A stretch of DNA of 33,146 bases. Origin: Oscillospiraceae bacterium (GTDB lineage Bacteria; Bacillota; Clostridia; Oscillospirales; Acutalibacteraceae). The stretch covers positions 1 to 33,146 of the forward strand of contig CADBBT010000016.1 of assembly GCA_902792985.1 (NCBI GenBank), in the 5' to 3' direction. Of this stretch, positions 4,244 through 30,739 are shown in pieces (within the stretch, counting starts at the first letter, position 1; every line of letters begins with the position of its first letter). The notes beneath the pieces are model-generated. The model saw nothing but the letters and a program-made list of their open reading frames with translations, made no database searches and was not told the DNA's origin. The translations under genes were made by a program, and so were the position numbers.

Positions 4244-4275
4244 AGCTGCGGCCGAATGGCCGCAGCTTTTTTTTT
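4244..4275 (+). terminator. Strong intrinsic terminator after gapA
   Basis: A perfect 10-bp stem (4244-4253 with 4258-4267), a GAAT tetraloop and a nine-T tract (4267-4275). The last five T also form the outer pairs of the next hairpin in element A. Confidence 0.92.
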
Positions 4276-4430
4276 CGCCGTTTTGCAAAGCAAAACGGCG
4301 AAAAACCCGGCGGCGGAACGCCCCGTGCAGCGCACGGGGCGTTCCTAAGGCGTGCCGCCTTAGAAACCGCGCTGCTTCGCAGCGTGGTTCCGCCGCCGGG
4401 GTGTCGCGCAAAGCGCAGCTTTGCGCGACA
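4271..4430. repeat. Nested-palindrome element A
   Basis: Non-coding block made almost wholly of inverted repeats. The leading hairpin pairs 4271-4286 with 4290-4305 (16 bp, loop AAA). The outer stem pairs 4306-4319 with 4387-4400 (14 bp, core GGCGGCGG). Inside it lie three hairpins: 4316-4328/4332-4344 (13 bp, loop AGC), 4345-4352/4356-4363 (8 bp, loop TGC) and 4367-4375/4379-4387 (9 bp with one G-T, loop TTC). The trailing hairpin pairs 4402-4414 with 4418-4430 (13 bp, loop GCA). All hairpin loops are three bases. The first inner hairpin shares the GAAC arm with the outer stem, so two alternative folds exist. No ORF with coding character was seen. Elements B, C and D share this plan. Confidence 0.85.
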
Positions 4431-4448
4431 GAAGCGTACATGCAGCTC

Positions 4449-4477
4449 TTGCATTTTTAGCCGGTTTATGCTATGAT
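4449..4477 (+). promoter_or_regulatory. Sigma-A promoter for the SDR gene
   Basis: TTGCAT (4449-4454), a 17-base spacer and TATGAT (4472-4477), 19 bases after element A ends. Confidence 0.65.
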
Positions 4478-4502
4478 TGTCAAAAAAACGGAGGGATCAT
4501 TG

Positions 4503-5501
4503 ATGGAAAAACACTTGAGCGTCGTTACCGGCGCAAACGGTTATCTCGGCTATGCGCTTGTGCACGCGCTTGCCGAACGCGGAGAGGATGTGCGCCTTGC
4601 CATGCTCTTTGACTGCACCGAATTCGATCATCTCGGCTTTGAAAAATGCATCGGCAACATCACCGACATGGATTACCTGGAAAAGACCTTTGCCGGCGCG
4701 GAAACGGTTTATCATGTGGCCGGCATCGTGGACATCACCGGCGAGCGCGACCAGCTTGTGTGGAGCGTCAACTATGAGGGCACGAAAAACGTGGTTGCCG
4801 CCTGTAAAAAATGCGGCGTGAAGAATCTGGTCTATGTTTCGTCCGTGGACTGTGTTCCCGTGACCGACGAGATGGAAAAAATCACCGAACTGACCGCTTT
4901 TGACCCTGAACCCATTGAGGGCGCCTACGGCAAAAGCAAGGCAGCGGCGAGCCAGTTCGTGATGGATTCCAACGACGCGGCGTTGAAAACCGTGGTCGTG
5001 CAGCCGAGCTGCTGCATCGGTCCGAACGACATTTACGGTACCAATCCCGTGTGCACAATGATCGAACTGTATCTGAAAGGACTGTTCCCGGTCACACTGT
5101 CCTTTGGCGCCTATAATTTTGTGGATGTACGCGATGTTGCCAAAGGCATGATCGCTGCTGCGGAAAAAGGACACGGCGGCGAATGCTATTACCTTTGCGG
5201 CGAACGGATGACGGTGGAGGAATTCATTGCCACACTGGCAAAGATCAACGGCAAAAAGCCGCCGAAGATCGCACTGAACAAAAAGACCATTCTCGCACTT
5301 TGCCCGGCCATCGGGGTGCTCTTTAAACTGATGAAGCTGCCGCCCGTGGTCACGCCGTTTTCTATGAACAAGCTCTGCGAAAACTGCAATTTCAGCTATG
5401 AAAAGGCCGCTGCCGACCTCGACTATCGGCCGATGACGGCGTATGAATCCTTGAGCGACACTGTGGCGTGGATCAAAGAGAAGAACGCGAAAAAACAGTG
5501 A
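4503..5501 (+). CDS. NAD(P)-dependent epimerase/dehydratase-family protein (extended SDR)
   Basis: The 332-residue protein has the nucleotide-binding glycine motif TGANGYLG near residues 8-15. Its catalytic Tyr-Lys pair is in YGKSKAAA (about 142-149), with an upstream Ser in the YVSSVD strand. The overall plan matches extended SDRs of the dihydroflavonol reductase/3-beta-hydroxysteroid dehydrogenase type, which oxidise or reduce a hydroxyl/keto group. The actual substrate cannot be read from sequence. The ATG at 4503 is chosen because GGAGGG at 4490-4495 is spaced seven bases from it; an in-frame ATG at 4473 overlaps the promoter -10. The gene is monocistronic with its own promoter and a terminator shared with the convergent gene. 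Confidence 0.88.
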   Translation: MEKHLSVVTGANGYLGYALVHALAERGEDVRLAMLFDCTEFDHLGFEKCIGNITDMDYLEKTFAGAETVYHVAGIVDITGERDQLVWSVNYEGTKNVVAACKKCGVKNLVYVSSVDCVPVTDEMEKITELTAFDPEPIEGAYGKSKAAASQFVMDSNDAALKTVVVQPSCCIGPNDIYGTNPVCTMIELYLKGLFPVTLSFGAYNFVDVRDVAKGMIAAAEKGHGGECYYLCGERMTVEEFIATLAKINGKKPPKIALNKKTILALCPAIGVLFKLMKLPPVVTPFSMNKLCENCNFSYEKAAADLDYRPMTAYESLSDTVAWIKEKNAKKQ

Positions 5502-5504
5502 ATA

Positions 5505-5552
5505 AAAACAGCGCTTACCTGCAAGACGGTTCTTGCCGATAAGCGCTGTTTT
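5505..5552. terminator. Bidirectional terminator between convergent genes
   Basis: A 13-bp stem (5505-5517 with 5540-5552) has A/T tracts on both edges, so it works in either direction. A second 6-bp stem (GCAAGA/TCTTGC, 5521-5536) is stacked inside. Confidence 0.85.
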
Positions 5553-5602
5553 ATGTTTCGGTTGTTTTGAAAAACGCAGCGCCCTGTTTTTGCCGCGTCC
5601 GG

Positions 5603-6154
5603 TTATGGGGTCGGTTCTGCGTCCAGCGCGTAGACGCCCTCGGTGGCTTTCAACTCAAACAGGCGAACCGGTTGATCTGCTCCCCGGGCAACATCGGACA
5701 GAATGATCGCTTTGATTCCGGCCTCTTCCATATGATCTTCGTTCAAAATTTCCCAGCAAATATCCGCCTGATACGGACGGTCTGCCAAAATATGAATGGC
5801 CAGCTTCGCCTGACAGATTTTGTCCTGATCTGCCGAAACCGGACCGGAGCAAAGCTCCCATTCGGCTGTTTGCACATCGCCCTGTATGAGATCGAACATC
5901 TCCCGGAGATGTTCTTGGGCGTTCGGGTCGTTCCTTTTGATATTCGCGCACAAACGCGCAAGGAGCGGGTCGGCGTCCTTTTCTTTGAACGCTTCGGCAA
6001 TGACCGGCGCGTTATTCGTCACACTGTTTTGTGTGATGTGGTGTCCGAGCATGATGGTGGAACTGTTTGGAAAAATCGTGATCAAAAACGCAAATACAAC
6101 CGTCCAAAATTTTACATAGACCGTCGTGTCCATCGACTGAAGGAATCTTTTCAT
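5603..6154 (-). CDS. Membrane-anchored hypothetical protein
   Basis: The 183-residue protein has an N-terminal hydrophobic segment (about 14-30, YVKFWTVVFAFLITIF), consistent with a signal anchor, followed by a soluble mostly helical domain. The domain has two cysteines in CANIKR and ICQAK contexts and one in ICWEIL. I recognise no family. The start is supported by AAGGAG eight bases upstream. It is the last gene of the minus-strand group zinc-ribbon protein - galU - this gene, 57 bases after galU, so it is probably co-transcribed with both. A role in envelope biology is suggested only by that neighbourhood and the membrane segment. Confidence 0.75.
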   Translation of the reverse strand: MKRFLQSMDTTVYVKFWTVVFAFLITIFPNSSTIMLGHHITQNSVTNNAPVIAEAFKEKDADPLLARLCANIKRNDPNAQEHLREMFDLIQGDVQTAEWELCSGPVSADQDKICQAKLAIHILADRPYQADICWEILNEDHMEEAGIKAIILSDVARGADQPVRLFELKATEGVYALDAEPTP

Positions 6155-6211
6155 GGCAAAATCTCCTTTTTCTCCTGTTTCGTGATTGCTGCAAAAATCA
6201 AGCAGAGCACT

Positions 6212-7093
6212 TTACAGCGTCTTTGCCAGCTCCTTGATATATTCGCGGAACTGTTCACCGATCTCGTCGTGCTGCAGCGCCACTTCACAGTTTGCTTTCA
6301 TAATGCCGAGCTTGTTGCCCATGTCAAAACGCGTGCCCTCAAAATCAAGCGCCTGCAGGCCGCTTTCTTTTGCAAGGATGGTCATGGAATCGGTGAAGTA
6401 GACCTCGTGTGCCTTCGGGTCCTCCGGCGTGCGTTCAATGATATCGAAAATTTCCGGCGGCATCACCACGCGGCCGAGGATCGAATAGCAGGAAATGATC
6501 TGATCCTCCGTCGGCTTTTCAATGATGTTGTGCACATCCATGAGGCGGTCCTTGACCGGTGTGACGTCGAGCGAGCAGTATTTGCTCACATCCTTGCGCG
6601 GCACCTCTTTCACACCGACGATGCCTTTGCCGTACTGCTCAAAGCAGTCGCAAAGCTGGCCGATGACGGGCGTTCCGCCGGGGTTGACCGTGACGTCGTC
6701 GCCGTAAAGGATGGCGAACGGCTCGTTGCCGATGAAGCTTTTGGCGCAAAGGATCGCGTGGGCGAGGCCTTTTGTTTCTTTTTGGCGCAAGAAGTAAATG
6801 TTCGCCATATTTGCGGGTGCAACCACGTCGGCGTAGATTTTTTCTTTGCCGGGCGCGTTTTTGAGGTTTGCCTCCAGCTCGAATGCGTGGTCAAAGTGGT
6901 CCTCAATGGCGCCTTTGCCGCGGTTCGTGATGATGAGGATGTCCTCAATCCCGGCGGCAACAGCCTCTTCCACAATGTACTGGATCGCGGGGCGGTCCAC
7001 AATGTTGAGCATCTCTTTCGGAATGGATTTGGACGCCGGCAGCACACGGGTGCCGAGTCCGGCGGCGGGAATGATCGCTTTTTTGACTTTCAT
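6212..7093 (-). CDS. galU: UTP-glucose-1-phosphate uridylyltransferase
   Basis: It makes UDP-glucose from UTP and glucose-1-phosphate, the donor for cell-wall polymers, glycolipids and exopolysaccharides. The 293-residue length is typical. The nucleotidyltransferase signature AAGLGTRVLPASKSIPKEML is near residues 10-29. Further family blocks are YIVEEAVAAGI, ILYGDDV (metal/nucleotide site), GVKEV and the IEKPTED region. AGGAGG is eight bases upstream of the ATG, and the gene follows the zinc-ribbon gene by 12 bases, so they share the promoter at 8191-8218. The window also carries a polysaccharide exporter and O-acetylation genes that could use products of this pathway. Confidence 0.96.
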   Translation of the reverse strand: MKVKKAIIPAAGLGTRVLPASKSIPKEMLNIVDRPAIQYIVEEAVAAGIEDILIITNRGKGAIEDHFDHAFELEANLKNAPGKEKIYADVVAPANMANIYFLRQKETKGLAHAILCAKSFIGNEPFAILYGDDVTVNPGGTPVIGQLCDCFEQYGKGIVGVKEVPRKDVSKYCSLDVTPVKDRLMDVHNIIEKPTEDQIISCYSILGRVVMPPEIFDIIERTPEDPKAHEVYFTDSMTILAKESGLQALDFEGTRFDMGNKLGIMKANCEVALQHDEIGEQFREYIKELAKTL

Positions 7094-7105
7094 GTGGAGA
7101 TCCTC

Positions 7106-8158: not shown

Positions 8159-8190
8159 AGAACAATCCTTTCAGGCTTTTCTTTTTCTCT

Positions 8191-8218
8191 ATTGTACCGC
8201 TTTTCTGAAAAAAAGCAA
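8191..8218 (-). promoter_or_regulatory. Promoter for the zinc-ribbon-galU operon
   Basis: On the minus strand: TTGCTT (8218-8213), a 16-base spacer and TACAAT (8196-8191). Confidence 0.6.
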
Positions 8219-8271
8219 TCGGTTTTCAATATTTTATGTCCTTTCCTGCGAAAAATATTTTAAAATTATGG

Positions 8272-8299
8272 TTGCACATTGGAAATATTCGTGTATAAT
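8272..8299 (+). promoter_or_regulatory. Promoter for prfB
   Basis: TTGCAC (8272-8277), a 16-base spacer and a consensus TATAAT (8294-8299). It lies 54 bases from the divergent promoter. Confidence 0.7.
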
Positions 8300-8338
8300 A
8301 ATATCTGTATATTGTTCGGCAGAAAGGAAACCTTAGCC

Positions 8339-9460: not shown

Positions 9461-9522
9461 GCTGTTTGAAGCTGTTAGCCGTTAGTCGTTAGCTGTTAGC
9501 TGTTAGCTTTTAGCCGTTAGCG
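9458..9522 (+). repeat. Degenerate 7-bp repeat array after the prfB stop codon
   Basis: Seven clear heptads of GTTAGCY type lie at 9474-9522 (variants GTTAGTC, TTTAGCC, GTTAGCG). One degenerate copy and the TAA-containing heptad at 9458-9464 extend the phase to the stop codon. Every clear copy contains TAG. Because 7 is not a multiple of 3, successive TAGs fall in different frames, covering all three. Related arrays follow argH and glnA. Confidence 0.85.
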
Positions 9523-9530
9523 AAAAGTTT

Positions 9531-9739
9531 AAGGGGCTGTTGCATTTAGATGAAAACGGCGTTTTCTTCGACCGAAGGCTACAGTTACGCCGAGAAAGAA
9601 AAACGGCGAGTCAAAGCAAAAACCATATCCTTTTAAAAAATAAAAATCAAGGAAAGCGCTTTCTTTACAGAACAGGTCTGCGGAAAGCGCTTTCTTTTTC
9701 GTTTGCTTTGACGTTTTTCGCTAAATGCGACAGTCCCTT
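9531..9739. mobile_element. 209-bp MITE-like element with 19-bp terminal inverted repeats
   Basis: Left end 9531-9549 (AAGGGGCTGTTGCATTTAG) matches the inverse of right end 9721-9739 with two mismatches. Weaker inverted similarity continues about 12 bases inward. A second internal inverted pair is GTCAAAGCAAA (about 9610-9620) with TTTGCTTTGAC (about 9702-9712). No transposase frame exists inside, so it would be non-autonomous. The GGGGCTGTTGCA-type end recalls IS1182/ISL3-group ends from memory; this is not verified. I could not identify a convincing target duplication. Together with the heptads, it fills most of the gene-free stretch 9461-9881. Confidence 0.6.
9651..9696. repeat. Two direct copies of a 12-bp palindrome
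   Basis: GGAAAGCGCTTTCTTT occurs at 9651-9666 and again at 9682-9697 or within a base of it. Each contains the perfect palindrome GAAAGCGCTTTC followed by T-rich sequence. They may act as weak terminators after prfB, or as protein binding sites. Confidence 0.6.
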
Positions 9740-9813
9740 TTTGAAAAGCATCCACTGATGAAATCGTCTGCGCAAATATTTTCGCACCGATCGAATGAGG
9801 TGATACAAAACAC

Positions 9814-9842
9814 TTGATTTTCCGGCGCACGCATGGTAGGAT
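9814..9842 (+). promoter_or_regulatory. Promoter for the secreted SGNH hydrolase
   Basis: TTGATT (9814-9819), a 17-base spacer and TAGGAT (9837-9842). Confidence 0.55.
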
Positions 9843-9881
9843 AGAACTGTGAGCGCTTGTGCAGAAAGGATTGATGTTTCG

Positions 9882-11015
9882 ATGATTGCTTGCAGCAGGA
9901 AAGTCTGTGTTGTTTTGTTTGTTTTGCTGTTATTGCTTGGCACGTTTTCGTTTGCCGCTTCGTCTTCAAACGTCATGCCCGGCCTGCCGACAGAGTACTG
10001 CACCGCGATTGTCGGTACTGACCTGACATTTCATGTTGATGCTAACGTGGTTTCTGTCGAGAGCAGCCGTGCGGACATTGCGGCCGCTTTTTTCGATGCG
10101 GGTGAACTCAAAATCGTTCCGTCTGCGACGGGTGACACAACCGTTACCGTCACCCAAGCGGACGGTAACGCTGAAACCTTTGACATTTACGTTTATGCTT
10201 CACAAGCGGAATATGAATATTTGCAAACCGTGTTTCAAGGCAAGACCTTCTCCGTTCTAGGCGACAGCATCTCCACACTGGAACCGTGGGATGATGGCGG
10301 AGCTTCGCGCTATTTTGATTTTGAGACAGTTGCCAATTGCGGTTTAGACAGCGGACTGGTGAATGCAAACGGCGAAAACAAGGGCGGTATTCCCATCCGC
10401 CGCAGGGACACCTACTGGGGCAACTTGCAGACCCGTTTCGATATGACGCTGGGCAATCTCGTTTCCTGGAGAGGAAAAACGGTGATCGACTGGATGGAAA
10501 GTGACGCACAAATCCATCGGCTTGGCAAAAACGGAACGCCGGACGTGATCTTTTTTAACGGCGGCAGCAATGATATTTTGAAGAAGAAAGCGCTCGATGA
10601 TTATTGCGCGGCGTATGATACCGTGCTGACGAAGCTTGGCGCAGACTACCCGGATGCAACCATCCTTGCACTGCTGCCTTGCGCACCGTCCGGTAATGCG
10701 CCTTATAACGCGGCGGCGATGGAGCTTTGTGAGCTGCATCATGTGGAATATGTGAACCTTGCAGCGTCCGGCGTCAAAGCGCTGCACCCAGACGCGGACG
10801 GATTTTCCAAAGAGGTCGGTTATATTCTTGATACGCTTTATGCCAACGAAAGAAGCCGCCTTGCAGATGCGCAGGAGCCTGTGACACAAGAGGCGGTGAC
10901 GGATGCGCCCACAACGAAACCTACGGTCGATGCGCCCACCGCGCCGAAGCTGAATTTTTTCCAGCGGCTGCTTGCATGGCTGCGTACGTTCTTTGCGCAC
11001 CTGTTCGGAAGATGA
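9882..11015 (+). CDS. Secreted SGNH/GDSL-family hydrolase
   Basis: The 377-residue protein is exported: an N-terminal signal sequence has a long leucine/valine core (about 9-25) ending near SFAASSS. A small Ig-like or adhesion-type region (about 30-105) precedes the hydrolase domain. Block I is GDSIS with the nucleophile at about S129, block III is NGGSNDI (about 226-232), and the last catalytic His is in LHPDADGF (about 302). Such enzymes deacylate esters, often acetyl groups on polysaccharides. A Thr/Pro linker (PTTKPTVDAPTAP) then leads to an aromatic amphipathic tail (FFQRLLAWLRTFFAHLFGR) that may attach the enzyme to the envelope. ATG 9882 is chosen over GTG 9849 because it follows AGAAAGGA and starts at the signal sequence. 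Substrate unknown. Confidence 0.85.
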   Translation: MIACSRKVCVVLFVLLLLLGTFSFAASSSNVMPGLPTEYCTAIVGTDLTFHVDANVVSVESSRADIAAAFFDAGELKIVPSATGDTTVTVTQADGNAETFDIYVYASQAEYEYLQTVFQGKTFSVLGDSISTLEPWDDGGASRYFDFETVANCGLDSGLVNANGENKGGIPIRRRDTYWGNLQTRFDMTLGNLVSWRGKTVIDWMESDAQIHRLGKNGTPDVIFFNGGSNDILKKKALDDYCAAYDTVLTKLGADYPDATILALLPCAPSGNAPYNAAAMELCELHHVEYVNLAASGVKALHPDADGFSKEVGYILDTLYANERSRLADAQEPVTQEAVTDAPTTKPTVDAPTAPKLNFFQRLLAWLRTFFAHLFGR

Positions 11016-11050
11016 CCGGCTTGTTCTTCCGCTTTTAAAATACAAAAATG

Positions 11051-11078
11051 CCCGCCGTGGGATGTGAACCGCGGCGGG
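11051..11078. terminator. Shared terminator of the SGNH gene and the argH operon
   Basis: A 10-bp stem (11051-11060 with 11069-11078, one G-T pair) with an 8-base loop. T-rich sequence follows on the minus side (opposite 11035-11048) and a weaker TCTTCTATT on the plus side. Confidence 0.75.
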
Positions 11079-11088
11079 TCTTCTATTC

Positions 11089-11130
11089 GCTAACGACTAA
11101 CAGCTAATAGCTAACAGCTATCAGCAATCA
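11089..11130 (-). repeat. 7-bp repeat array starting at the argH stop codon
   Basis: Six heptads. In the argH direction they read TGATTGC, TGATAGC, TGTTAGC, TATTAGC, TGTTAGT, CGTTAGC. The first three bases are the argH stop codon itself. The other five copies carry TAG in rotating frames. Orientation to the upstream gene is the same as in the prfB array. Confidence 0.85.
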
Positions 11131-12501
11131 GCTCCCCAATCTCTCTTTCAGCGCTTTGATCTCCTTGCGCACGCATTCCGGCGCGGGGCCGCCTTTGACC
11201 GTGCGGCGGTTCACACAGGCGTCGAGGTCGATCGCGTCGAACACGCCCTCGTCAAACAGCTCGCAAACCTTGCGGTAATCGTCGAGCGGCAGGGTTTCCA
11301 GCGTCAGGCCGCGGTCGATGCAAAGCGCCACGAGCTCGCCCGTGCATTTGTAGGCGTCACGGAAGGGGAGTCCCTTGCCGACCAGATAGTCGGCGCAGTC
11401 GGTGGCGTTGATGAAGCCGCCGGCGGCAGCCTTGCGCAGATTCTCGCGCAAAACAGTCGCGGTTTCCAGCATGGGGCTGAAGGTGTCGAGACACAGCAGC
11501 ACCGTGTCCACCGCGTCAAACACCGCCTCTTTGTCCTCCTGCATATCCTTGTTGTAGGCCAGGGGGATGCCCTTCATCACCGTCAGAAGGGTCATCAGAT
11601 CGCCGAACACACGGCCCGATTTTCCGCGCACCAGCTCCGCAATGTCGGGGTTTTTCTTTTGCGGCATGATGGAGCTGCCGGTGGAAAACGCATCGTCCAG
11701 CTCAACGAATTTGAACTCCCATGAGCACCAGAGAATGACCTCTTCCGCAAATCGCGACAGGTGCACCATGATGATGGACAGCGCGCTCAGAAGCTCCAGC
11801 ACATAGTCGCGGTCGCTCACGCCGTCCAGACTGTTGTCGCTCACGCCTGAAAGACCGAGCAGCCCGGCGGCATAGGCGCGGTCAAGCGGATAGGTCGTGC
11901 CGGCCAGCGCACCGGAGCCGAGGGGAGACACGGCCATGCGCTTTTTGCAATCGGTCAAGCGGTCGCGGTCGCGTTCCAGCATGGCGGCATAGGCGAGCAG
12001 ATGGTGACCGAACGTGACGGGCTGCGCGCGCTGCATATGGGTGTAGCCGGGCATGACGTAATCGGCGGTCGCTTCTGCTTTGTCAGCGATCACGCGCAAA
12101 AAACGCACGATGGCAGCGTCTACAAGATCGGTTTGCTCGAGCAGATACAGCCGCAGGTCGAGCGCAACCTGATCGTTGCGGCTGCGCGCGGTGTGCAAAC
12201 GTTTTCCGCTGTCGCCGATACGGCGGGTCAGCTCGGCTTCCACAAAGGTGTGGATGTCCTCGACCGTCATGTCGATCTCCAGCTTTCCGCTTTCCAGATC
12301 TGCAGCGATCTCGCCCAGCGTTGCGGCGATCTTTTCGCTTTCCGCTTTGTCGAGGATGCCCTGTTTGCCGAGCATGGTCACATGCGCGACCGACCCGGCG
12401 ATGTCCTGCTTCGCCATGCGGCAGTCAAAGGGGATCGACGCGTTGAAATCGTTGGTCTGTTTGTCCAGTGTTTTTTTGAATCGTCCTGTCCAAAGGGGCA
12501 T
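11128..12501 (-). CDS. argH: Argininosuccinate lyase
   Basis: It cleaves argininosuccinate to arginine and fumarate, the last step of arginine synthesis; the enzyme is a cytoplasmic homotetramer of the fumarase/aspartase superfamily. The 457-residue length is normal. Visible motifs are the N-terminal LWTGRF, HTARSRNDQVALD (substrate site), YTHMQRAQPVTFGHH, and the superfamily signature GSSIMPQKKNPD carrying the catalytic serine. AAGGAGGT lies seven bases before the ATG. It is the third gene of the GDPD-Ogt-argH operon, 18 bases after the Ogt-like gene. argG is not in the window. The stop codon sits inside a heptad repeat. Confidence 0.97.
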   Translation of the reverse strand: MPLWTGRFKKTLDKQTNDFNASIPFDCRMAKQDIAGSVAHVTMLGKQGILDKAESEKIAATLGEIAADLESGKLEIDMTVEDIHTFVEAELTRRIGDSGKRLHTARSRNDQVALDLRLYLLEQTDLVDAAIVRFLRVIADKAEATADYVMPGYTHMQRAQPVTFGHHLLAYAAMLERDRDRLTDCKKRMAVSPLGSGALAGTTYPLDRAYAAGLLGLSGVSDNSLDGVSDRDYVLELLSALSIIMVHLSRFAEEVILWCSWEFKFVELDDAFSTGSSIMPQKKNPDIAELVRGKSGRVFGDLMTLLTVMKGIPLAYNKDMQEDKEAVFDAVDTVLLCLDTFSPMLETATVLRENLRKAAAGGFINATDCADYLVGKGLPFRDAYKCTGELVALCIDRGLTLETLPLDDYRKVCELFDEGVFDAIDLDACVNRRTVKGGPAPECVRKEIKALKERLGS

Positions 12502-12519
12502 GGGAACGACCTCCTTGCT

Positions 12520-12825: not shown

Positions 12826-13646
12826 AAGCTTTCATAATACTGCTTCGCAGCGAGCAGGAAATCGGTCTGCACGATGTCGAAGCCCTTTTCTTTGAACCAG
12901 CCCCAGCCGAACTCCGGGTCGCCGCAAACAGCTTTGTCATCGGTGTGTCCGGCGGAAAGCACGTCCTTGTAGTTGTAAACGATGGCGTTGCCCCAAACCG
13001 CAAGTCCGCACGCGTGAAAGCTGTTTATGGATGCGTCGCTGACAATGGGCGCGTCCTCATTTTCAAACAGCGCTTCCACACCGGCGAGACGGATGCCCTT
13101 GCTTTGAATGTACGGCGTGATCTCGTCATTGTCGCGCACCATAACGAACAGCGGCAGCTCCGGCGCGGCGGCAGCGGCCTTGTCGGCGTCGCGCTTTTTC
13201 GCGGGGATCTTCACAAGCACCTGTGATTGCAGATTGTGCCGGCGGATGCAATCGGCGATCGCGTCGGGGTACATCCAGTATTTGTCGATGTTGAGCAGAC
13301 ACTTGCCCTTCAGCAGCTCAAACGCGTTGTCCAGTGTCAAAAGGGGGTCTTCGGTCTTTGTGCGGTCGGCGTTGACAAAGCGCAGGCGCGAGATCGCGCT
13401 TTCTTTCATCGTGCAAAGCAGTCGTCGCTGCGCCAGATGCACATACTCCATGCCCGGATGAAACACCCAAAGCGTACCGTCTTTGGCGCGTGTAACGTCA
13501 AGTTCGATGATATCGGCGCCCTGTGCCAGTGCGGCTAGAAAGGCTTTTTCCGAATTGCAGGGAATGTTGCCGCCGCAAACGCCTCGGTGCGCCGCGAGCA
13601 GCGGACGTTCACCGCCGCGCAGCAGAGAAGGGAACGGATTGGTCAT
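12822..13646 (-). CDS. Glycerophosphodiester phosphodiesterase-family protein
   Basis: The 274-residue TIM-barrel protein has the GDPD signature: HRG at 20-22, E48 and D50 in IIELDVTRAKDGTLWVFHP, and H63. The family hydrolyses glycerophosphodiesters to glycerol-3-phosphate and an alcohol. No signal peptide is seen, so it is probably cytoplasmic. The C-terminal barrel strands are present (KGFDIVQTDFL), with a second aromatic segment PEFGWGWF. ATG 13646 has AAAGGAG seven bases upstream and a near-consensus promoter just before it; a longer frame reaching 14114 runs through element B and is rejected. First gene of the operon with the Ogt-like gene and argH. Confidence 0.88.
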   Translation of the reverse strand: MTNPFPSLLRGGERPLLAAHRGVCGGNIPCNSEKAFLAALAQGADIIELDVTRAKDGTLWVFHPGMEYVHLAQRRLLCTMKESAISRLRFVNADRTKTEDPLLTLDNAFELLKGKCLLNIDKYWMYPDAIADCIRRHNLQSQVLVKIPAKKRDADKAAAAAPELPLFVMVRDNDEITPYIQSKGIRLAGVEALFENEDAPIVSDASINSFHACGLAVWGNAIVYNYKDVLSAGHTDDKAVCGDPEFGWGWFKEKGFDIVQTDFLLAAKQYYESL

Positions 13647-13677
13647 TGAAATGCTCCTTTCCGAGTGTCTTTGCAAA

Positions 13678-13775: not shown

Positions 13776-13932
13776 GGCGGCGGGCGGGTCGCCGGCGTGC
13801 TTGCACGCCGGCGAAAAGGGGCGCGGCGCAGGGGTGAAGAAGGAAAACAGCGCGTAAGGCCGCGCCCCTTTCCCACGCGGCTGCGCCGCGTGGGCCCGCC
13901 CGCCGCCCGTGCGCACGGCGCAGCCGTGCGCA
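13776..13932. repeat. Nested-palindrome element B
   Basis: The outer stem pairs 13776-13788 with 13895-13907 (13 bp, GGCGGCGGGCGGG). Inside it are three hairpins: 13789-13800/13803-13814 (12 bp), 13815-13827/13859-13871 (13 bp with a 31-base loop) and 13872-13881/13885-13894 (10 bp, loop TGC). These tile the interior with almost no spare bases. A trailing hairpin pairs 13910-13919 with 13923-13932 (10 bp, loop GCA). No leading hairpin is obvious. It occupies most of the gene-free stretch 13647-14040, between the GDPD promoter and the kinase terminator. Its long-loop hairpin resembles that of element D. Confidence 0.85.
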
Positions 13933-19311: not shown

Positions 19312-21063
19312 ATGGAAAAAATGCTCAACATTAAAATCAACAACATGCCTTGTACCGTTCCTTACGGTACGACCGTTCTCGAAGCTGCCCGCTCGGTCGG
19401 CATCGAGATCCCGACGCTCTGCTTCCTCAAAGATCTCAACGAGATCGGCGCCTGCCGTTTCTGCGTTGCCGAGGTCAAGGGCGCAAGAAGCCTTGTTGCC
19501 GCCTGTGTGTTCCCGATCGAACGCGACGGCACCGAGATCTTCACCAACACCGAAAAGATCCGCGCTTCCCGCCGCAAGACGCTGGAGCTGATCCTTTCCA
19601 CCCATGAGCGCAAGTGCCTTTCCTGCGTGCGCAGCGGCGAATGCGAACTGCAGAAGCTCTGCAAAGAGTACGGCGTGGAGGATGAGGGCGTTTTTGACGG
19701 CTTTAAGCCCCATTATGAGCTTGACACCTCCGCGGCACACATGATCCGCGACAACAACAAGTGCATTCTTTGCCGTCGCTGCGTGGCCGCCTGCAAAAAC
19801 CAGGACATCAACGTCATCGGCGCAAATGCCCGCGGCATCGACACACACATCGGTTCTGCTTTTGAGCTGCCGCTGGGTTCCACCTCCTGCGTCTCCTGCG
19901 GCCAGTGCATCGTTTCCTGCCCCGTCGGCGCGCTTTATGAAAAGAGCGCGATCAAAGACGTTCAGAAAGCCATTGCCGACCCGAGCAAATATGTTGTCGT
20001 GCAGGCTGCGCCGTCCATCCGCGCAACGCTTGGCGAATGCTTCGATATGCCCGTCGGTACCGACGTGACCGGCAAGCTCTTTGCTGCAATGCGTCGCCTC
20101 GGTTTTGACAAGGTGTACGATACCAACTTCGGCGCCGACCTCACCATCATGGAAGAGGCGAACGAACTTCTTGACCGTGTCAAGAACGGCGGCGTGCTGC
20201 CGATGATCACCTCCTGCTCCCCGGGCTGGATCAAGTATTGCGAACACTATTATCCCGATCAGCTCGCGCATCTGTCCTCCTGCAAATCTCCGCAGCAGAT
20301 GCAGGGCGCCATCATCAAAACCTACATCGCCGAGAAGAACGGCATTGACCCGAAGGATATCGTTTCCGTCTCCGTCATGCCCTGCACGGCGAAGAAGTTC
20401 GAGATCGGCCGCGACGATCAGAACGCCAGCGGTTATCCCGATGTGGACTATGTCCTCACGACCCGCGAGCTCGGCCGCATGATCAAAACGGCAGGCATCC
20501 GCTTCACGGAACTGCCCGATGAAAATCCGGACGCACCGCTCGGTCAGGGCACCGGCGCTGCCGTCATCTTCGGCGCATCCGGCGGCGTGATGGAAGCTGC
20601 GCTTCGTACCGCAGCGGAAGTCATCACCGGCAAAGAGCTGGAGGATGTGGAATTCAAGGATGTCCGCGGCATGCAGGGCGTCAAGGAAGCGTCCTATGAT
20701 CTTGCCGGCCTGAATGTCAAGGTCGCCATTGCAAGCGGCACCAAGAACGCGAAGATCCTGATGGACAAGGTGCGTGAAGGCACTGCCGATTACACCTTCA
20801 TCGAGATCATGTGCTGCCCCGGCGGCTGCATCAACGGCGGCGGTCAGCCCGTACAGCCGGCTTCGGTGCGCAACTTCACCGATCTCAAGAGCCTGCGTGC
20901 GAACGCGCTGTATGAGAACGACAAAAACCGTCCGCAGCGTAAGAGCCACGAGAGCGAGGACATCAAGCAGGTCTACAGCGAATTCCTCGGCGCGCCCAAC
21001 AGCCATAAAGCGCACGAGCTGCTGCACACCAGCTATGTCGCTCGTCCGATGTTCAAGAAATAA
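19312..21063 (+). CDS. hndD: [FeFe] hydrogenase catalytic subunit
   Basis: The 583-residue protein reduces protons to H2. In order it has: a plant-type [2Fe-2S] domain (C37, C48, C51, C65), a His-Cys3 [4Fe-4S] site (H98, C102, C105, C111), and two [4Fe-4S] motifs (C151, C154, C157, C161 and C193, C196, C199, C203). The H-cluster domain follows with L1 TSCSPGW (C302), L2 MPCTAKKFE (C358) and L3 EIMCCPGGCINGGGQP (C502, C506). L1 carries Ser303 where single-subunit enzymes such as CpI have the proton-relay Cys. With hndABC it should form an NADH/ferredoxin-linked, possibly bifurcating complex. Maturation genes hydEFG are not in the window. Element C begins 18 bases after the stop. Confidence 0.97.
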   Translation: MEKMLNIKINNMPCTVPYGTTVLEAARSVGIEIPTLCFLKDLNEIGACRFCVAEVKGARSLVAACVFPIERDGTEIFTNTEKIRASRRKTLELILSTHERKCLSCVRSGECELQKLCKEYGVEDEGVFDGFKPHYELDTSAAHMIRDNNKCILCRRCVAACKNQDINVIGANARGIDTHIGSAFELPLGSTSCVSCGQCIVSCPVGALYEKSAIKDVQKAIADPSKYVVVQAAPSIRATLGECFDMPVGTDVTGKLFAAMRRLGFDKVYDTNFGADLTIMEEANELLDRVKNGGVLPMITSCSPGWIKYCEHYYPDQLAHLSSCKSPQQMQGAIIKTYIAEKNGIDPKDIVSVSVMPCTAKKFEIGRDDQNASGYPDVDYVLTTRELGRMIKTAGIRFTELPDENPDAPLGQGTGAAVIFGASGGVMEAALRTAAEVITGKELEDVEFKDVRGMQGVKEASYDLAGLNVKVAIASGTKNAKILMDKVREGTADYTFIEIMCCPGGCINGGGQPVQPASVRNFTDLKSLRANALYENDKNRPQRKSHESEDIKQVYSEFLGAPNSHKAHELLHTSYVARPMFKK

Positions 21064-21080: not shown

Positions 21081-21254
21081 CGCACGAAGATTCGCCGCCG
21101 GCGAATCTTCGTGCGTTTCACCGCCGCAGAGCGGTTTTTGCCCTTGGCAAAAACCCGGGGCGCAGCTGTGCTGCGCCCTGCCCGCCGCCGGCGGGCGGCG
21201 GGGCTCTGCGGCGGCCTTGTGGCTGTTGCATTTCGTGAAATGCAACAGCCACAA
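21081..21254. repeat. Nested-palindrome element C
   Basis: The leading hairpin pairs 21081-21096 with 21100-21115 (16 bp, loop GCC). The outer stem pairs 21121-21131 with 21204-21214 (11 bp, CCGCCGCAGAG). Inside are three hairpins: 21133-21142/21146-21155 (10 bp, loop CTT), 21158-21166/21170-21178 (9 bp, loop TGT) and 21181-21189/21194-21202 (9 bp, several registers possible). The trailing hairpin pairs 21217-21234 with 21237-21254 (18 bp). The leading hairpin may also terminate the hydrogenase transcript, although the tract after it is only TTTCA. Same plan as A. The trailing hairpin contains GGCTGTTGCATTT, as in the MITE end at 9531. Confidence 0.85.
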
Positions 21255-21836: not shown

Positions 21837-21874
21837 AACGATTTGTGAATTTTTGATTTCCTGCGTGTGGGTTC

Positions 21875-21903: not shown

Positions 21904-21935
21904 ACTAAAGATAAACGCTCGACCCGGAGGATCCT

Positions 21936-23218: not shown

Positions 23219-23263
23219 GAAAGGGATCAAAAAACAAAGGATCGTTAAGGGGAAACAAGCGTT

Positions 23264-24685: not shown

Positions 24686-24694
24686 GGCGAGTTT

Positions 24695-25885: not shown

Positions 25886-25903
25886 ATGATTGAAGGAAAA
25901 GCT

Positions 25904-26620: not shown

Positions 26621-26648
26621 CGCGCGCTTTTATCTTGAAAGAACTGAA

Positions 26649-26677
26649 AACCCCGCCGTAAACGCTACGGCGGGGTT
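26649..26677. terminator. Bidirectional terminator between the M15 gene and glnA
   Basis: A perfect 12-bp stem (26649-26660 with 26666-26677), a 5-base loop, and A/T-rich edges on both sides. Confidence 0.85.
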
Positions 26678-26689
26678 GCTCTATTCTAT

Positions 26690-26717
26690 GGACTATCGAC
26701 TATCGACTAACGACTCA
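26690..26717 (-). repeat. 7-bp repeat array starting at the glnA stop codon
   Basis: Four heptads read in the glnA direction: TGAGTCG, TTAGTCG, ATAGTCG, ATAGTCC. The first begins with the glnA stop codon TGA. The other three place TAG in all three frames. Confidence 0.75.
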
Positions 26718-28046
26718 ATACTTTCCGAGATACTTTTCGATTTCCCACTGCGACACGCGGGTGCAGTATTCTTTCCATTCTTCGGTCTTTGCCTCAATGT
26801 ACTTTTTGAACACATGATCGCCCATGCATTCGCGCATGAAGTCGTCGTGCTTGAATTCGTGGATCGCTTCGCCAAGCGTCTTCGGCAGCGAATGGATGCC
26901 CTGCGCGTGGCGCTCTTCGGTCGAAAGCGTGAAGATGTTGCTGTCCTTCGGTTCCGGCGGGGTCAGACCGCGTTTGATGCCGTCGAGACCGGCGAAGATG
27001 ACTGCCGCCATTTCAAGATACGGGTTTGCGGCCGGGTCGGGGTTGCGCAGCTCCACGCGGGTGGCGTTGCCCTTTGCGGAGGGGATGCGGATGAGCGGGC
27101 TGCGGTTCTTTGCGGACCAGGCGATATACACCGGCGCTTCATAGCCGGGCACAAGGCGCTTATAGGAGTTGACGATCGGGTTCGTCAGCAGCGTCAGGGG
27201 CTTGATGTGTTCCATCAGGCCGGCGATGAACTGATAGGCGACGGACGACAGGCCAAACGCGTCGTTTGCATCATAAAAGGCGTTTTTGCCGTCCTTGAAC
27301 AGGGAGATGTTCGTGTGCATACCGGAGCCGCACTGACCGAACATCGGCTTGGGCATGAAGGTCGCGTAAAGCCCGTGGGCGCGCGAAACGCTTTTGACAA
27401 CATACTTGAAGGTCATCACGTTGTCCGCTGTGCGCAAAACTTCGTCATAGCGGAAGTCGATCTCATGCTGCGCAATGGCGTTTTCATGGTGGGACGCTTC
27501 GATCACAAAGCCCATGCGCTCAAGCACAAGGCAGATATCGTTGCGGCAGCTTTCGCCGCGGTCCGTGGGGCCAAGCTCAAAATAGCCGCCCTTGTCAAAG
27601 GTTTCGGTGGTCGGCTTGCCGTTCTGATCGAGATGGAACAGGAAAAATTCGCATTCCGGGCCGACATTGACTGTGAAGCCCAGATCGGCGGCTGCTTTGA
27701 TCGCGCGGCGCAGCACATAGCGCGGGTCGCCCTCAAACGGGGTGCCGTCGGCGCGAAAAACGTCGCAGATCAAGCGCGCGGTCTTGCTTTCTTCCGACTG
27801 CCAGGGGAGGATCACAAAGGAGTCCAGATCCGGATGCAGGCACATATCGCTTTCTTCAATACGCACAAAGCCGTCAATGGACGAGCCGTCGAAGCCGCAG
27901 CCGTTTGAAAGCGCTTTTTTGAGCTGGCTCGCGGTCACGGTCACGCTTTTGAGCATGCCGAGGATGTCGGTGAACTGCAGACAGATGAATTTTACGTTTT
28001 CTTCTTCGGCGATGCGGAAGATATCCTCTTTTGTGTATTTCGCCAT
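26715..28046 (-). CDS. glnA: Glutamine synthetase type I (alpha)
   Basis: It makes glutamine from glutamate, ammonia and ATP and is the main ammonia-assimilation enzyme, a cytoplasmic dodecamer. The 443-residue length matches the Firmicutes GSI-alpha form. Motifs: [10 protein letters not shown] (N-terminal domain), GPECEFFLF (metal-binding Glu), [44 protein letters not shown] and the [11 protein letters not shown] segment. The adenylylation-site loop of GSI-beta is absent. ATG 28046 ([10 protein letters not shown]) is preceded by AAAGGAAGG; the longer frame to 28220 overlaps the promoter. Single gene with a near-consensus promoter. Its stop codon starts a heptad repeat array. Confidence 0.98.
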
Positions 28047-28097
28047 GTCGATCGCCTTCCTTTCGGGGAATCGTGAATTGTTCTGCTGATCTTTACA

Positions 28098-28126
28098 AAT
28101 ATAACACGATTGACGGCATTTGTCAA
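28098..28126 (-). promoter_or_regulatory. glnA promoter with overlapping inverted repeat
   Basis: On the minus strand: TTGACA (28126-28121), a 17-base spacer and TATATT (28103-28098). TTGAC and GTCAA (28126-28122 and 28114-28110) form a 5-bp inverted repeat with a 7-base gap across the -35 and spacer. This could be an operator. It does not match the GlnR consensus I know. Confidence 0.8.
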
Positions 28127-28186
28127 CAAAACGAGGGCCCATTTTTTGTGCATTTGGTAGATAAATTTTTCTGTTCTTGCATAGAC

Positions 28187-28215
28187 TTGCAAATTTTACC
28201 ACCGTCGGGTATAAT
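28187..28215 (+). promoter_or_regulatory. Promoter of the MFS transporter gene
   Basis: TTGCAA (28187-28192), a 17-base spacer and TATAAT (28210-28215). AAAGGAGG precedes the ATG at 28246. Confidence 0.8.
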
Positions 28216-28245
28216 AACAATTAACAGTTCAAAGGAGGAATCTTC

Positions 28246-29790
28246 ATGGCTGAAAAAAAAGAAAAGAAAACAACGGAAGGAAAACTCAATTATAAACGCA
28301 CCTTCCTGATCGGCTTTGGCTTTATGGGCTGCATGCTGCTTTGGTCGGTCTATAATTCCTATGTGCCCGTGATTCTGCGCGGCAAGCTCTCGCAGCTCGG
28401 CATCGCCGATTTTGCACAGGCGCACGCGTTCTTCAAATGGGTGTCTGTGCCGCTGATCGTCAACGCGATCATGACCATCGACAACATCTTCGGCGTGGTC
28501 TTCCAGCCGCATTTCGGCAAACGGAGCGACCGCACGCACACCAAGCTCGGCAAGCGTATGCCCTACATTTTGGTCTGCCTGCCGATCTGCGCGCTGTTCT
28601 TCACATTCGTTCCCGTGGCCGCGACCGTGCGCGCCACCGGCCTTTCCATTCTTTTGATGATGGCCGTCATCATCTGCTTCAACTTCCTGATGTCGGTCTG
28701 GCGTTCCCCGGTCGTTTCGCTGATGCCGGACTTCACGCCCTCGGAGCTGCAAAGCGACGCCAACGCCGTGATCAACATCATGGGCGGCATCGGTCAGATG
28801 GTCGGCTTCGTGGTCGGCACCATCGCTTCCACGCTCTGCGGTCTGCTCGGCTTTGTGACCCTTTCAAACAACCTGAAGGCCGACACCAACGCGCTTGGTG
28901 AAGTGCTGGACGAAGCGGGCAACGTTGTGTTGAACGCGGCGGGCGAACCCGTCTATGTCAACTATACGCCGGTCTTCCTTGTGGCGGCGATCATTTCCGT
29001 GCTCTGTCTTGTGGTGCTTTACTTCTTCTATAAGCGCAACAAGCAGTACGACCTTTCCGCAAACGTCGGCTTTGAAGGCGGCGAAGAGGAAAAGAAAGAA
29101 AAGATCAAGATCAAGAACCTGCCCATCACCAAAGAAGAAAAGCGTTCGCTGTTCATCATGCTCGGCGCGCTGTTCCTGATCAACAACGCCACGGAAGCCA
29201 TTGTTCCGAACTTTACCAACTTTGCCAACGATACGCTGAAGGTCTCCCCGATCTATTCCACGCTGATGATGGCTGTCTTTGCCGTTTCGCTTGCCGTGTT
29301 CGGCATTCCGGCCGGCAGAATGGGCCGCAAGCTCGGCAGGAAAAAGACGATTGTTATCGGCCTTGCCGTGATCGTTGCCATGTTCGCCATCTATCTTGCC
29401 GTGTCGCAGTTCCTGCCCGCCAACGCGGACGGTTCGGTGAATAAATTCACCTGGATCACCCTTTGGGTCGCGCTTGTGGTCGGCGGCGCCGCTGTCGGCT
29501 GCATCAACATCAACACGCTCCCGCTTGTGCTCGCCATTGGCGGCCGCGAATATGTCGGCACCTTCACCGGTTACTATTACACCGCGACGATGTCAGCCTC
29601 CGTGACCGGCCCCATCCTTTGCGGCCTTGTCATCGGTCTGTTCAAAGAGGACTACAACTTCATGTTCCTGTTCTGCTCGGCCTTCTTTGCGCTCGGTCTG
29701 CTGACCATGTTCGGCGTCAAGCACGGCGAGATCGCCAAGGGTGAAGACGCTGCGTGGCTGGAAGAAGCTGTGAAGAACGCGGACGACTAA
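28246..29790 (+). CDS. MFS transporter, sugar:cation symporter-like (GPH/SLC45 type)
   Basis: The 514-residue protein has about 12 hydrophobic segments, a Lys-rich cytoplasmic start and a charged central loop (about 275-305, EGGEEEKKEKIKIKN). The first inter-helix loop has KRSDRTHTKLGKRMPYI, a close variant of the GPH/SLC45 R/K-rich signature (SDRTRTRFGRRRPY). The second half repeats it weakly (GRMGRKLGRKK). Proteins of this group import glycosides or sugars with H+ or Na+. The substrate cannot be told and no glycosidase is adjacent. It is followed by a weak hairpin and a secreted protein gene 67 bases away. Confidence 0.9.
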   Translation: MAEKKEKKTTEGKLNYKRTFLIGFGFMGCMLLWSVYNSYVPVILRGKLSQLGIADFAQAHAFFKWVSVPLIVNAIMTIDNIFGVVFQPHFGKRSDRTHTKLGKRMPYILVCLPICALFFTFVPVAATVRATGLSILLMMAVIICFNFLMSVWRSPVVSLMPDFTPSELQSDANAVINIMGGIGQMVGFVVGTIASTLCGLLGFVTLSNNLKADTNALGEVLDEAGNVVLNAAGEPVYVNYTPVFLVAAIISVLCLVVLYFFYKRNKQYDLSANVGFEGGEEEKKEKIKIKNLPITKEEKRSLFIMLGALFLINNATEAIVPNFTNFANDTLKVSPIYSTLMMAVFAVSLAVFGIPAGRMGRKLGRKKTIVIGLAVIVAMFAIYLAVSQFLPANADGSVNKFTWITLWVALVVGGAAVGCININTLPLVLAIGGREYVGTFTGYYYTATMSASVTGPILCGLVIGLFKEDYNFMFLFCSAFFALGLLTMFGVKHGEIAKGEDAAWLEEAVKNADD

Positions 29791-29811
29791 ACTGCATTTT
29801 ACGCAAAACGT

Positions 29812-29844
29812 TTGGGGTGACCGCCGGTTGCCCCAACTTGCTTT
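29812..29844 (+). terminator. Weak hairpin after the MFS gene
   Basis: TTGGGG (29812-29817) pairs with CCCCAA (29831-29836), with ACC/GGT inside. CTTGCTTTT follows. The U-tract is poor, so partial readthrough into the next gene is likely. Confidence 0.4.
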
Positions 29845-29857
29845 TGAAGGAGCTTTT

Positions 29858-30508
29858 ATGAAGATCAAAAAAAGACGCATCCTTTCCCTGCTTCTGGCGC
29901 TTTGTCTGCTGTTCTCCTTTGCTGCGCCGTTTTCGGCGGCAGCCGCAGGGAACGACGATGAGATCGTGGCAAATATGTATCTTTGCCATACAAGGACCCA
30001 AGGTTCCCTGTTCGGTCACTGCTGGGTCTATATTGAAAACCTTTCCGCTGAAACGCTGCAGATCGGCGCTTATGCCTGCCCGCCGGGGCAGGGTGTTTCT
30101 GTGGGCACTTGGGCGCTCACACGCGACGACGGCCACGGGATCTATTATAATCTGGAATCCTATCTGGTGAATGCCTTCGGTCTGGGGCGGATGCGCGCAA
30201 TCAAGGACACGCTCACGCGCGCCGAGTTGGAAAAGGTCAGCCGCCGTGCCGCAAAACAGAATTTTTGGGATTTTCTCTTCTTCAACTGCGCGTTTTACGC
30301 CGCCGCAGTCTGGAATGCGGGCAGCGGCAAAAAGGTCATTCCGCTGATTCACCCAACGGTTGTTTGGCTGCAAATCATGCTGCGCGGCGACATCGGAAGA
30401 GTTCAGATGTATTACCCGGCGCGCGAGCAGGTGCTCCGGCAGTCCGGCAGCGGCGGCAGTGCGTCGACCTATGTTGTTTCCGACGGCACTGTCGGAAAAC
30501 GGATGTAA
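29858..30508 (+). CDS. Secreted protein, possible permuted NlpC/P60-like cysteine hydrolase
   Basis: The 216-residue protein has a clear signal peptide (KIKKRR, a leucine-rich core, cleavage near SAAAAG at about 28-32). In the mature part FGHCWVYIEN (about 53-62) places a His early, and FFNCAFYAAAVWN (about 145-157) places a Cys late in an NC pair. A His-first/Cys-later order is typical of circularly permuted papain-like folds (LRAT, YiiX or DUF4105-like). The match is by motif only. Cell-wall hydrolysis or amide-bond chemistry outside the cell would be expected. AAGGAG lies five bases before the ATG. No dedicated promoter is seen, so it may be read from the MFS promoter. Confidence 0.7.
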   Translation: MKIKKRRILSLLLALCLLFSFAAPFSAAAAGNDDEIVANMYLCHTRTQGSLFGHCWVYIENLSAETLQIGAYACPPGQGVSVGTWALTRDDGHGIYYNLESYLVNAFGLGRMRAIKDTLTRAELEKVSRRAAKQNFWDFLFFNCAFYAAAVWNAGSGKKVIPLIHPTVVWLQIMLRGDIGRVQMYYPAREQVLRQSGSGGSASTYVVSDGTVGKRM

Positions 30509-30521
30509 ATTGTTGCACCAT

Positions 30522-30570
30522 GCAAAACGGAGACAGTCCGGCGGACGGTCTCCGTTTTGCTTTCTGTTTT
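30522..30570 (+). terminator. Terminator after the secreted protein gene
   Basis: A 13-bp stem (30522-30534 with 30548-30560) encloses a small GTCC/GGAC hairpin and is followed by TTTCTGTTTT. It may also serve as the leading hairpin of element D. Confidence 0.85.
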
Positions 30571-30581
30571 GCCGTGCGCGC

Positions 30582-30739
30582 GGCGGCGAGACGCCGCAGC
30601 CGACATGCGTCGGCTGCGCGCAAAGGAGCGCGGGCGGGCGTTCGAAAAATCACAGCCGCGTTTCCGGCGCTCCTTTGCCGGCCACACAGCATCGCTGTGC
30701 GGCGCGTCTCGCCGCCTTTTTCGCGCAGCGAAGCTGCGC
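30582..30739. repeat. Nested-palindrome element D
   Basis: The outer stem pairs 30582-30594 with 30704-30716 (13 bp, GGCGGCGAGACGC). Inside are three hairpins: 30596-30604/30609-30617 (9 bp, loop ATGC), 30620-30631/30667-30678 (12 bp, 35-base loop) and 30685-30690/30694-30699 (6 bp, loop ATC). The trailing hairpin pairs 30723-30729 with 30733-30739 (7 bp, loop GAA). The second hairpin and its long loop resemble element B (AAAGG-GCGCGG arm; A-rich loop with ACAGC then GCGT). It fills the convergent gap between the secreted protein and the minus-strand gene. Confidence 0.85.

What the first reader, a model, noticed from the sequence alone, without database searches (positions are those of the whole stretch)
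4271..30739. Four intergenic elements with one nested-hairpin plan but different sequences
Elements A (4271-4430), B (13776-13932), C (21081-21254) and D (30582-30739) each have a GC-rich outer stem of 11-14 bp (GCCGCC/GGCGGC core) enclosing exactly three hairpins that tile the interior, plus a hairpin immediately after; A and C also have one before. Most loops are three bases. Arms pair perfectly while the sequences differ between copies, which suggests structure kept by compensatory change. All are intergenic, in co-directional or convergent settings. No named family I know (REP/BIME, ERIC, riboswitches) fits. They could be a mobile palindromic element, a chromosome-organisation site or an RNA fold.
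Basis: seen in the sequence. Interest (0 to 1): 0.72.

Follow-up and report, generated by a model that had tools for sequence, protein, structure and literature searches.

The report
Three-hairpin cloverleaf repeats between genes
A bacterium carries dozens of short non-coding DNA elements that all fold into the same cloverleaf, one outer stem holding exactly three hairpins, while their letters differ, and their arms seem to be copied onto each other during DNA replication, so matching changes in the arms need not mean that an RNA is being conserved.

Summary
A-D fold as an outer stem around exactly three hairpins, with flanking hairpins, far beyond chance. They are a repeat family: in sampled stretches of this genome and two close relatives, 65 of 66 strict hits parse as three hairpins; shuffles gave none. 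A model built from other copies recovers all four on both strands, D weakly. Unrelated sequence families with the same plan occur in other species of the genus. Near-identical stems at many loci and empty sites in a relative point to dispersal. Of 35 copies between called genes 22 are convergent, against 42 of 225 gaps. Between species about 92% identical, stems stay paired while loops are rewritten and sometimes exactly inverted (4 of 17 changed loops by my pairing; 3 of 14 automated), the published signature of replication template switching. So covariation here does not prove an RNA. Best reading: a REPIN/BIME-like interspersed palindromic DNA element with a new cloverleaf plan, kept perfect by template switching, spread by unknown machinery. 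No transposase, target duplication or function was shown; an automated pair count does not favour paired change.

The parts
4271..4305 (.). A: 5' flanking hairpin, 16-bp stem, loop AAA
   Evidence: stem conserved in G043 with loop GTT
4306..4400 (.). A: cloverleaf; outer stem 14 bp (4306-4319 / 4387-4400), hairpins 4320-4340, 4341-4367, 4368-4386
   Evidence: model R1 76.7 bits
4402..4430 (.). A: 3' flanking hairpin, 13-bp stem
4241..4270 (+). Terminator-like hairpin with a T run behind the GAPDH gene (3195-4229), directly before element A
   Evidence: 1 found; shuffles mean 1.0, so the scan alone is no proof; Pfam
13776..13907 (.). B: cloverleaf; outer stem 13 bp; hairpins 13789-13814, 13815-13871 (31-nt loop), 13872-13894
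   Evidence: model R1 33.8 bits
13910..13932 (.). B: 3' flanking hairpin, 10-bp stem
21081..21115 (.). C: 5' flanking hairpin, 16-bp stem
21121..21214 (.). C: cloverleaf; outer stem 12 bp; hairpins 21133-21155, 21156-21180, 21181-21202; 3' of a [FeFe] hydrogenase gene (19312-21063)
   Evidence: orthologs in G004 and G043; Pfam; model R1 59.4 bits
21217..21254 (.). C: 3' flanking hairpin, 17-bp stem
30582..30716 (.). D: cloverleaf; outer stem 13 bp; hairpins 30595-30618, 30620-30678 (large apical loop), 30681-30703
   Evidence: orthologs in G004 and G043; model R1 23.6 bits
30723..30739 (.). D: 3' flanking hairpin, 7-bp stem, loop GAA

Best explanation
A-D are copies of a genus-restricted family of short (about 95-170 bp) non-coding interspersed palindromic DNA elements. 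The unit is a cloverleaf, often with one hairpin on each side (five hairpins in the best-defined subfamily). SHOWN: multi-copy; three inner hairpins; model matches on both strands; stems conserved between copies while loops vary; placement behind genes, mostly between convergent ones; present or absent at orthologous sites between species; loops replaced or inverted while stems stay paired. INFERRED, likely: the single strand folds during replication, and polymerase template switching between arms repeats one arm's mutations in the other and flips or rewrites loops, so the shape outlives its sequence. INFERRED, less certain: units spread as REPIN-like non-autonomous elements, the folded single strand being recognised by some enzyme acting in trans; they persist where they do no harm (behind genes) and may there act as bidirectional transcription or supercoiling buffers like BIMEs.
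For: Copies: 36 in 780 kb of G000, 12 (+1 parsed as one branch) in 457 kb of G004, 17 in 547 kb of G043 at outer stem >=11 bp, 65 of 66 parsed as three hairpins; 0 in 3 Markov shuffles of the first sample. Model R1: matches in 3 of 59 genomes (G000 55, G004 67, G043 48, some being both strands of one place), with stricter filters and at most 73 candidates scored per genome. Dispersal: of 29 loci with top model matches, 22 share the first stem, 24 the middle stem, 23 and 24 the two flanking hairpins (one off-centre locus read as missing has them). Of 10 real G000 elements mapped to G004 by flanks, 6 have an element there and 4 (A, B, C8:111438 and one on C6) do not. Context: 22 of 35 convergent against 42 of 225, Fisher p 2e-7. 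Template switching: at seven loci with both flanks orthologous in G000 and G043, of 28 loops 11 same, 4 exact reverse complement (A, D, C8:99307, C3:124126), 13 other (my pairing; p 1.3e-4 for 4 of 17). Automated: 16 same, 11 other, 3 inverted in cloverleaves (p 1.3e-3); 34, 11, 0 in other hairpins. Several adjacent pairs changed on both arms of A's middle hairpin. Across copies 59 both-sided cells against 5 one-sided. Stem pairs over 43 elements: 1678 Watson-Crick, 17 G-T, 3 A-C, 5 other.
Against: No transposase linked: no R1 copy in the fetched loci of the 6 Y1 hits of G000, G004 and G043, nor of one in G002; genes between closely spaced copies are ordinary. No clean empty site or target duplication. 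Automated ortholog counts do not favour paired change: 10 double against 15 single-side pairs (G000/G043) and 12 against 22 (G000/G004), with some misaligned and doubtful pairs. 13 further changed loops at multi-copy loci (C42, C56, C68; doubtful orthology) include no inversion; with them it is 4 of 30, p 1.3e-3. Within-family inversion is only suggestive: 7 reverse-complement pairs of 157 differing, null mean 3.05, maximum 9, from 25 of 99 regions that could be oriented. One of five covariation measures did not exceed shuffles (26 against 26.7). The context test rests on a home-made gene caller that misplaced B and D.
Confidence: 0.57

Rival explanations
1. RNA element: the cloverleaf is transcribed from the 3' ends of genes as a protective or terminating RNA fold, kept by selection for RNA pairing.
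For: A-D all lie 3' of a gene; very stable fold; strong covariation; convergent placement puts a 3' end on each side.
Against: Model R1 matches both strands; G-T pairs are about 1% of stem pairs, low for structured RNA (recalled); loops inverted; A follows a terminator-like hairpin; no Rfam match at the gathering score.
Confidence: 0.17
2. Chromosome-organisation or supercoiling site like BIMEs: the extruded or duplex element binds gyrase or a nucleoid protein between convergent genes.
For: 22 of 35 convergent; REPs of other bacteria also sit mostly between convergent and unidirectional genes (PMC3733652, passages seen); strand symmetry.
Against: Patchy: absent at orthologous sites, and no R1 match in 31 of 34 genomes of the genus; convergent gaps are also where a neutral insertion harms least.
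Confidence: 0.15
3. Not a mobile element: chance hairpins extended and homogenised in place by template switching, with no dispersal.
For: Template-switch signature; unrelated sequences with the same plan in different species.
Against: The same stems in the same order at many unrelated loci; about 26 places of one family in G002 at E below 1e-10; nothing in such a process demands three hairpins.
Confidence: 0.07

Closest known systems
REPIN (REP doublets forming hairpins; PMC3116915, abstract, passages and a figure legend seen)
   Same: Small non-autonomous intergenic palindromic element, multi-copy, variable spacer with compensatory changes; the authors propose an alternative 'clover' configuration (Fig. 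S11 legend).
   Different: A REPIN is two inverted REPs in one long hairpin and travels with a RAYT; here an outer stem holds three independent hairpins, and no RAYT linked to the repeat was found.
REP / BIME (PMC3733652, abstract and passages seen)
   Same: Extragenic palindromes at 3' ends, preferring convergent and unidirectional gaps.
   Different: REPs are 20-40 bp with a GTAG or CGTC tag; these units are about 95-170 bp and I saw no such tag.
MITEs (general knowledge)
   Same: Short, non-coding, inverted repeats, dispersed.
   Different: No terminal repeats tied to a transposase and no target duplication found; a single-hairpin MITE-like family lies in the same genomes.
Template-switch hairpins (PMC8794818, PMC8604942, abstract and passages seen)
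   Same: Arm homogenisation, multi-base paired changes and loop or spacer inversion.
   Different: Those are single hairpins in rRNA and microRNA genes or yeast coding genes; here a dispersed multi-hairpin element is affected.

Membership tests
REP/BIME | Unpaired GTAG or CGTC tag at one end | tested here: not met
   By eye only, on the printed flanks of subfamily copies; no conserved tag seen
REP/BIME | Extragenic, mostly at 3' ends and rarely in divergent gaps | tested here: met
   22 convergent, 11 co-directional, 2 divergent of 35; 2 further copies fell inside called ORFs
REPIN | Two inverted REPs forming one hairpin | tested here: not met
   Three hairpins inside an outer stem in 65 of 66 strict hits
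REP/REPIN | Linked RAYT (Y1 transposase) flanked by the same repeat | tested here: not met
   No R1 match in the fetched loci of 6 Y1 hits in G000, G004 and G043; the genomes are incomplete
MITE | Target site duplication at a clean empty site | tested here: inconclusive
   Gaps without a cloverleaf in G004 are too diverged to read boundaries
Rfam RNA families | Match at the gathering score | tested here: not met
   0 matches in the window
tRNA or tRNA-derived cloverleaf | tRNA gene prediction | tested here: not met
   ARAGORN: 0 in the window
Template-switch-shaped inverted repeat | Loop inversion and multi-base paired arm change between close relatives | tested here: met
   small sample, found and tested on overlapping data; and one search do not add support

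The most novel reading that the evidence does not exclude
A shape-defined mobile DNA: what is recognised and propagated is the outer-stem-plus-exactly-three-hairpins architecture of the single strand, not its letters. Template switching rewrites the sequence while the shape persists, and the same architecture has arisen or survived in several unrelated sequence families within one genus (R1 in G000/G004/G043; GGGGAGGC in G002; GCGAAGC in G011/G014; another in G018).
Probability: 0.28. Interest if true: 0.85.

Novelty: new variant of a known kind. Interest (0 to 1): 0.66.

Why it matters
It adds a new plan to the REP/REPIN kind in a group (named relatives are mostly rumen and gut MAGs labelled Clostridia, Ruminococcus or Oscillospiraceae) where the listings of six searches of an open-access library showed no description of it (subscription papers are mostly not held). 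It is also a warning: covariation, the usual proof of a conserved RNA, may be produced at scale by replication template switching. With dozens of copies per genome and close sister species, the family makes the rate of template switching and loop inversion directly measurable.

Tried and rejected
Cloverleaf as tRNA-derived or a known RNA family: no tRNA, no Rfam match at the gathering score. Phage or plasmid origin: one subfamily unit has no match in the phage or plasmid collections, and an exact hairpin pattern none in viral contigs. Composite transposon: the genes I scanned between three closely spaced pairs of copies are alkaline phosphatase, MBOAT and AlgX-like, radical SAM and acyltransferase genes plus small ORFs without Pfam match. 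Y1 transposase as partner: no link, and Y1 hits in 21 of 39 genomes do not track the repeat. Within-family loop-inversion test: only suggestive. Pair counts contain misaligned pairs and duplicates; kept as evidence against. The script scored 22 hairpins (11 same, 4 inverted, 7 other), mis-paired at least two and left others unmatched; I re-paired by hand from its printed arms: 28 loops, 11 same, 4 inverted, 13 other. Dropped before that count: two hairpins without counterpart (B, C3:60483) and three pairings that overlap the outer stem or lie inside the large middle hairpin (two in D, one in C8:99307; the script had scored two of them as same), and the long middle loops. Orthologous multi-copy loci (C42, C56, C68) were left out of it and are given under evidence against. 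The inversion pattern was seen first and tested on overlapping loci. An earlier count said 12 further elements; the right number is 8 with outer stem >=11 bp plus one weaker. Searches timed out on a bug with runs of N; fixed. Densities are biased upward, because most contigs were chosen for containing hits.
Full report
Check of the observation. The four elements fold as described (z -12.4, -6.7, -13.4, -6.1; no shuffle as stable). A scanner that looks for a perfect outer helix and folds its interior finds each as an outer stem of 12-14 bp around three branches. A and C have small loops throughout; B and D have a middle hairpin with a large loop.

Exactly three. In the first sample (654 kb of this genome, G000, window included), 21 of 21 hits with an outer stem of 11 bp or more and a stable interior had three branches, as did 5 of 5 in G004 (57 kb) and 3 of 3 in G002 (60 kb); stretches of eight other genomes (11-100 kb each) had none, and three Markov shuffles of the whole sample gave none. 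In the final sample of G000, G004 and G043, 65 of 66 such hits parsed as three; the odd one is a G004 copy whose outer helix runs on and which also holds three hairpins by eye. At the looser limit of 9 bp, 76 of 84 parsed as three (G000 40 of 44, G004 16 of 19, G043 20 of 21). Most stretches were chosen for containing hits, so these are not densities.

Anatomy. The parts table of 43 elements shows a recurring outer stem (GGCGGCGG-R-AC in many) and slots: first hairpin often ending in CGTGC-loop-GCACG, a variable middle hairpin (small, or AAAGG-GCGC with a long apical loop), and a third often ending in CGCGCRGC. In the best-defined subfamily the unit has five hairpins: GCGCGCAGC-loop, the cloverleaf, and TGCGCACGGC-loop, with near-identical stems and different loops at unrelated loci (27 of 29 loci displayed). 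A string search finds the first stem in 22, the middle stem in 24, the 5' hairpin in 23 and the 3' hairpin in 24 of the 29 (it misses one off-centre locus). Some copies carry further imperfect inverted arms, not explained.

Family and spread. A covariance model built from 11 small-loop copies matches 3 of 59 genomes searched: G000 55 times, G004 67, G043 48, some being both strands of one place; 31 of 34 genomes of the genus (own included) have no match, under stricter filters with at most 73 candidates scored per genome. It recovers all four window elements on both strands; D is the weakest, at E 0.017 and 0.16. G002 has its own family with unrelated sequence: about 26 places at E below 1e-10, and 12 of 12 fetched copies fold as outer stem plus three hairpins. 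G011 and G014 have another, just 3' of the same hydrogenase gene as element C (loci), G011 one more of different sequence, and G018 one 3' of GAPDH. Further stretches of G013, G014 and G018 (12.6-19.6 kb) had no strict hit. In 151 loci (1.11 Mb: 80 named loci plus relatives' loci, a few from G000 and G004) strict hits split 3 with three branches, 3 with one and 1 with two; of the three, two are real cloverleaves (G004, G014) and one, from a named MAG, looks unrelated. One three-branch hit in G026, another family, falls just below the energy limit. In these samples the plan is frequent in parts of this genus and not seen to be so elsewhere in the order.

Presence and absence. G004 is 75-90% identical over aligned blocks of the window. 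Element A's site there has no cloverleaf and a different terminator; so has the site of C8:111438. By flank mapping 6 of 10 real G000 elements have an element at the site in G004 and 4 do not. C and D have orthologs there with paired changes, for example GAGC/GCTC to GGGC/GCCC in C's outer stem. At C3:117234 the same gap holds an element with a different middle hairpin. In G043 (87-93% identical) all four window elements are present, and B's long middle loop is wholly different while its stems are nearly the same.

How the shape is kept. At seven loci with both flanks orthologous in G000 and G043, loops change more than flanks predict: 17 of 28 changed, about 24% expected from 8% divergence, p 4e-5; at 10% divergence p 6e-4. 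Four of the 17 are exact reverse complements: A (AGC to GCT), D (ATC to GAT), C8:99307 (CCT to AGG) and C3:124126 (AAC to GTT); chance at 1 in 63 gives p 1.3e-4. The 28 pairings are mine, made from the printed arms after seeing the pattern; rows dropped are listed under Tried and rejected. Adding 13 changed loops at multi-copy loci, none inverted, gives 4 of 30, p 1.3e-3. An automated survey gives 16 same, 11 other and 3 inverted in cloverleaves against 34, 11 and 0 elsewhere. A's middle hairpin changed several adjacent pairs on both arms. Arm homogenisation plus loop or spacer inversion is the stated signature of template switching (PMC8794818 and PMC8604942, abstract and passages seen). Against: the automated pair count shows more single-side than double changes (10 against 15, and 12 against 22), and within families inversion is only suggestive.

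RNA or DNA. Stem pairs over 43 elements: 1678 Watson-Crick, 17 G-T, 3 A-C and 5 other, counting the outer eight pairs of the middle hairpin. The outer stems were selected to be perfect; in the first and third hairpins alone it is 765, 5, 1 and 2. Folding as RNA favours G-T over A-C, so that difference is not evidence. Both-strand model matches and the rarity of G-T speak for DNA-level maintenance.

Place. Of 35 elements placed between called genes, 22 lie between convergent genes, 11 co-directional and 2 divergent; 2 more fell inside called ORFs. Of 225 gaps of 120 bp or more, 42 are convergent and 53 divergent; Fisher p 2e-7 and 0.014. My gene caller labelled B convergent and D co-directional; from ORFs and a promoter-like site B is co-directional and D convergent, which leaves the totals unchanged. 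The bias fits both a 3'-end role and neutral insertion where there is no promoter. REPs elsewhere show a like preference (PMC3733652, passages seen).

Verdict. It works like a REPIN or BIME but fails defining features tested here (tag, by eye; doublet; linked RAYT). I rate it a new variant of the interspersed palindromic element kind, with a new architecture and a suggestive template-switch history. Mobilising enzyme and function are not shown.

Noticed in passing
window 12826-12828; G043 C64 about 3294-3457: A separate single-hairpin MITE-like family of about 165 bp (ends GGTACCC ... GGGTACC) is inserted in G043 but not here, with an apparent 3-bp repeat (AAG) at the junction; similar copies at G043 C56 about 20089 and C41 about 84615 and a single-hairpin hit at G000 C8:170614.
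   Followed up: partly
window 9470-9740 and 11069-11136: Multi-copy repeats in opposite orientation lie on either side of a GDSL-lipase-like gene (9849-11015); many matches in G043.
   Followed up: no
G043 C64:11866-12063 (right of element C): A roughly 200-bp insertion similar to window 9543-9737 sits in G043 where element C's 3' hairpin lies here.
   Followed up: no
L033 (G026), after GAPDH: An array of small hairpins with GAA-type loops separated by AATACCACTG-like spacers, a different palindromic repeat in a related genus.
   Followed up: no
L249 (G004 C16), 649-704: A Y1 transposase gene near a 26-bp hairpin (arm CAGACAGGGGGACGGTTCTCTGTCTG), a possible RAYT-type unit unrelated to the cloverleaves.
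   Followed up: no
L276, L282 and other G043/G000 subfamily copies: Long imperfect inverted arms of about 100 nt surround the five-hairpin core in some copies, on one or both sides, so a larger fold-back element may exist.
   Followed up: partly
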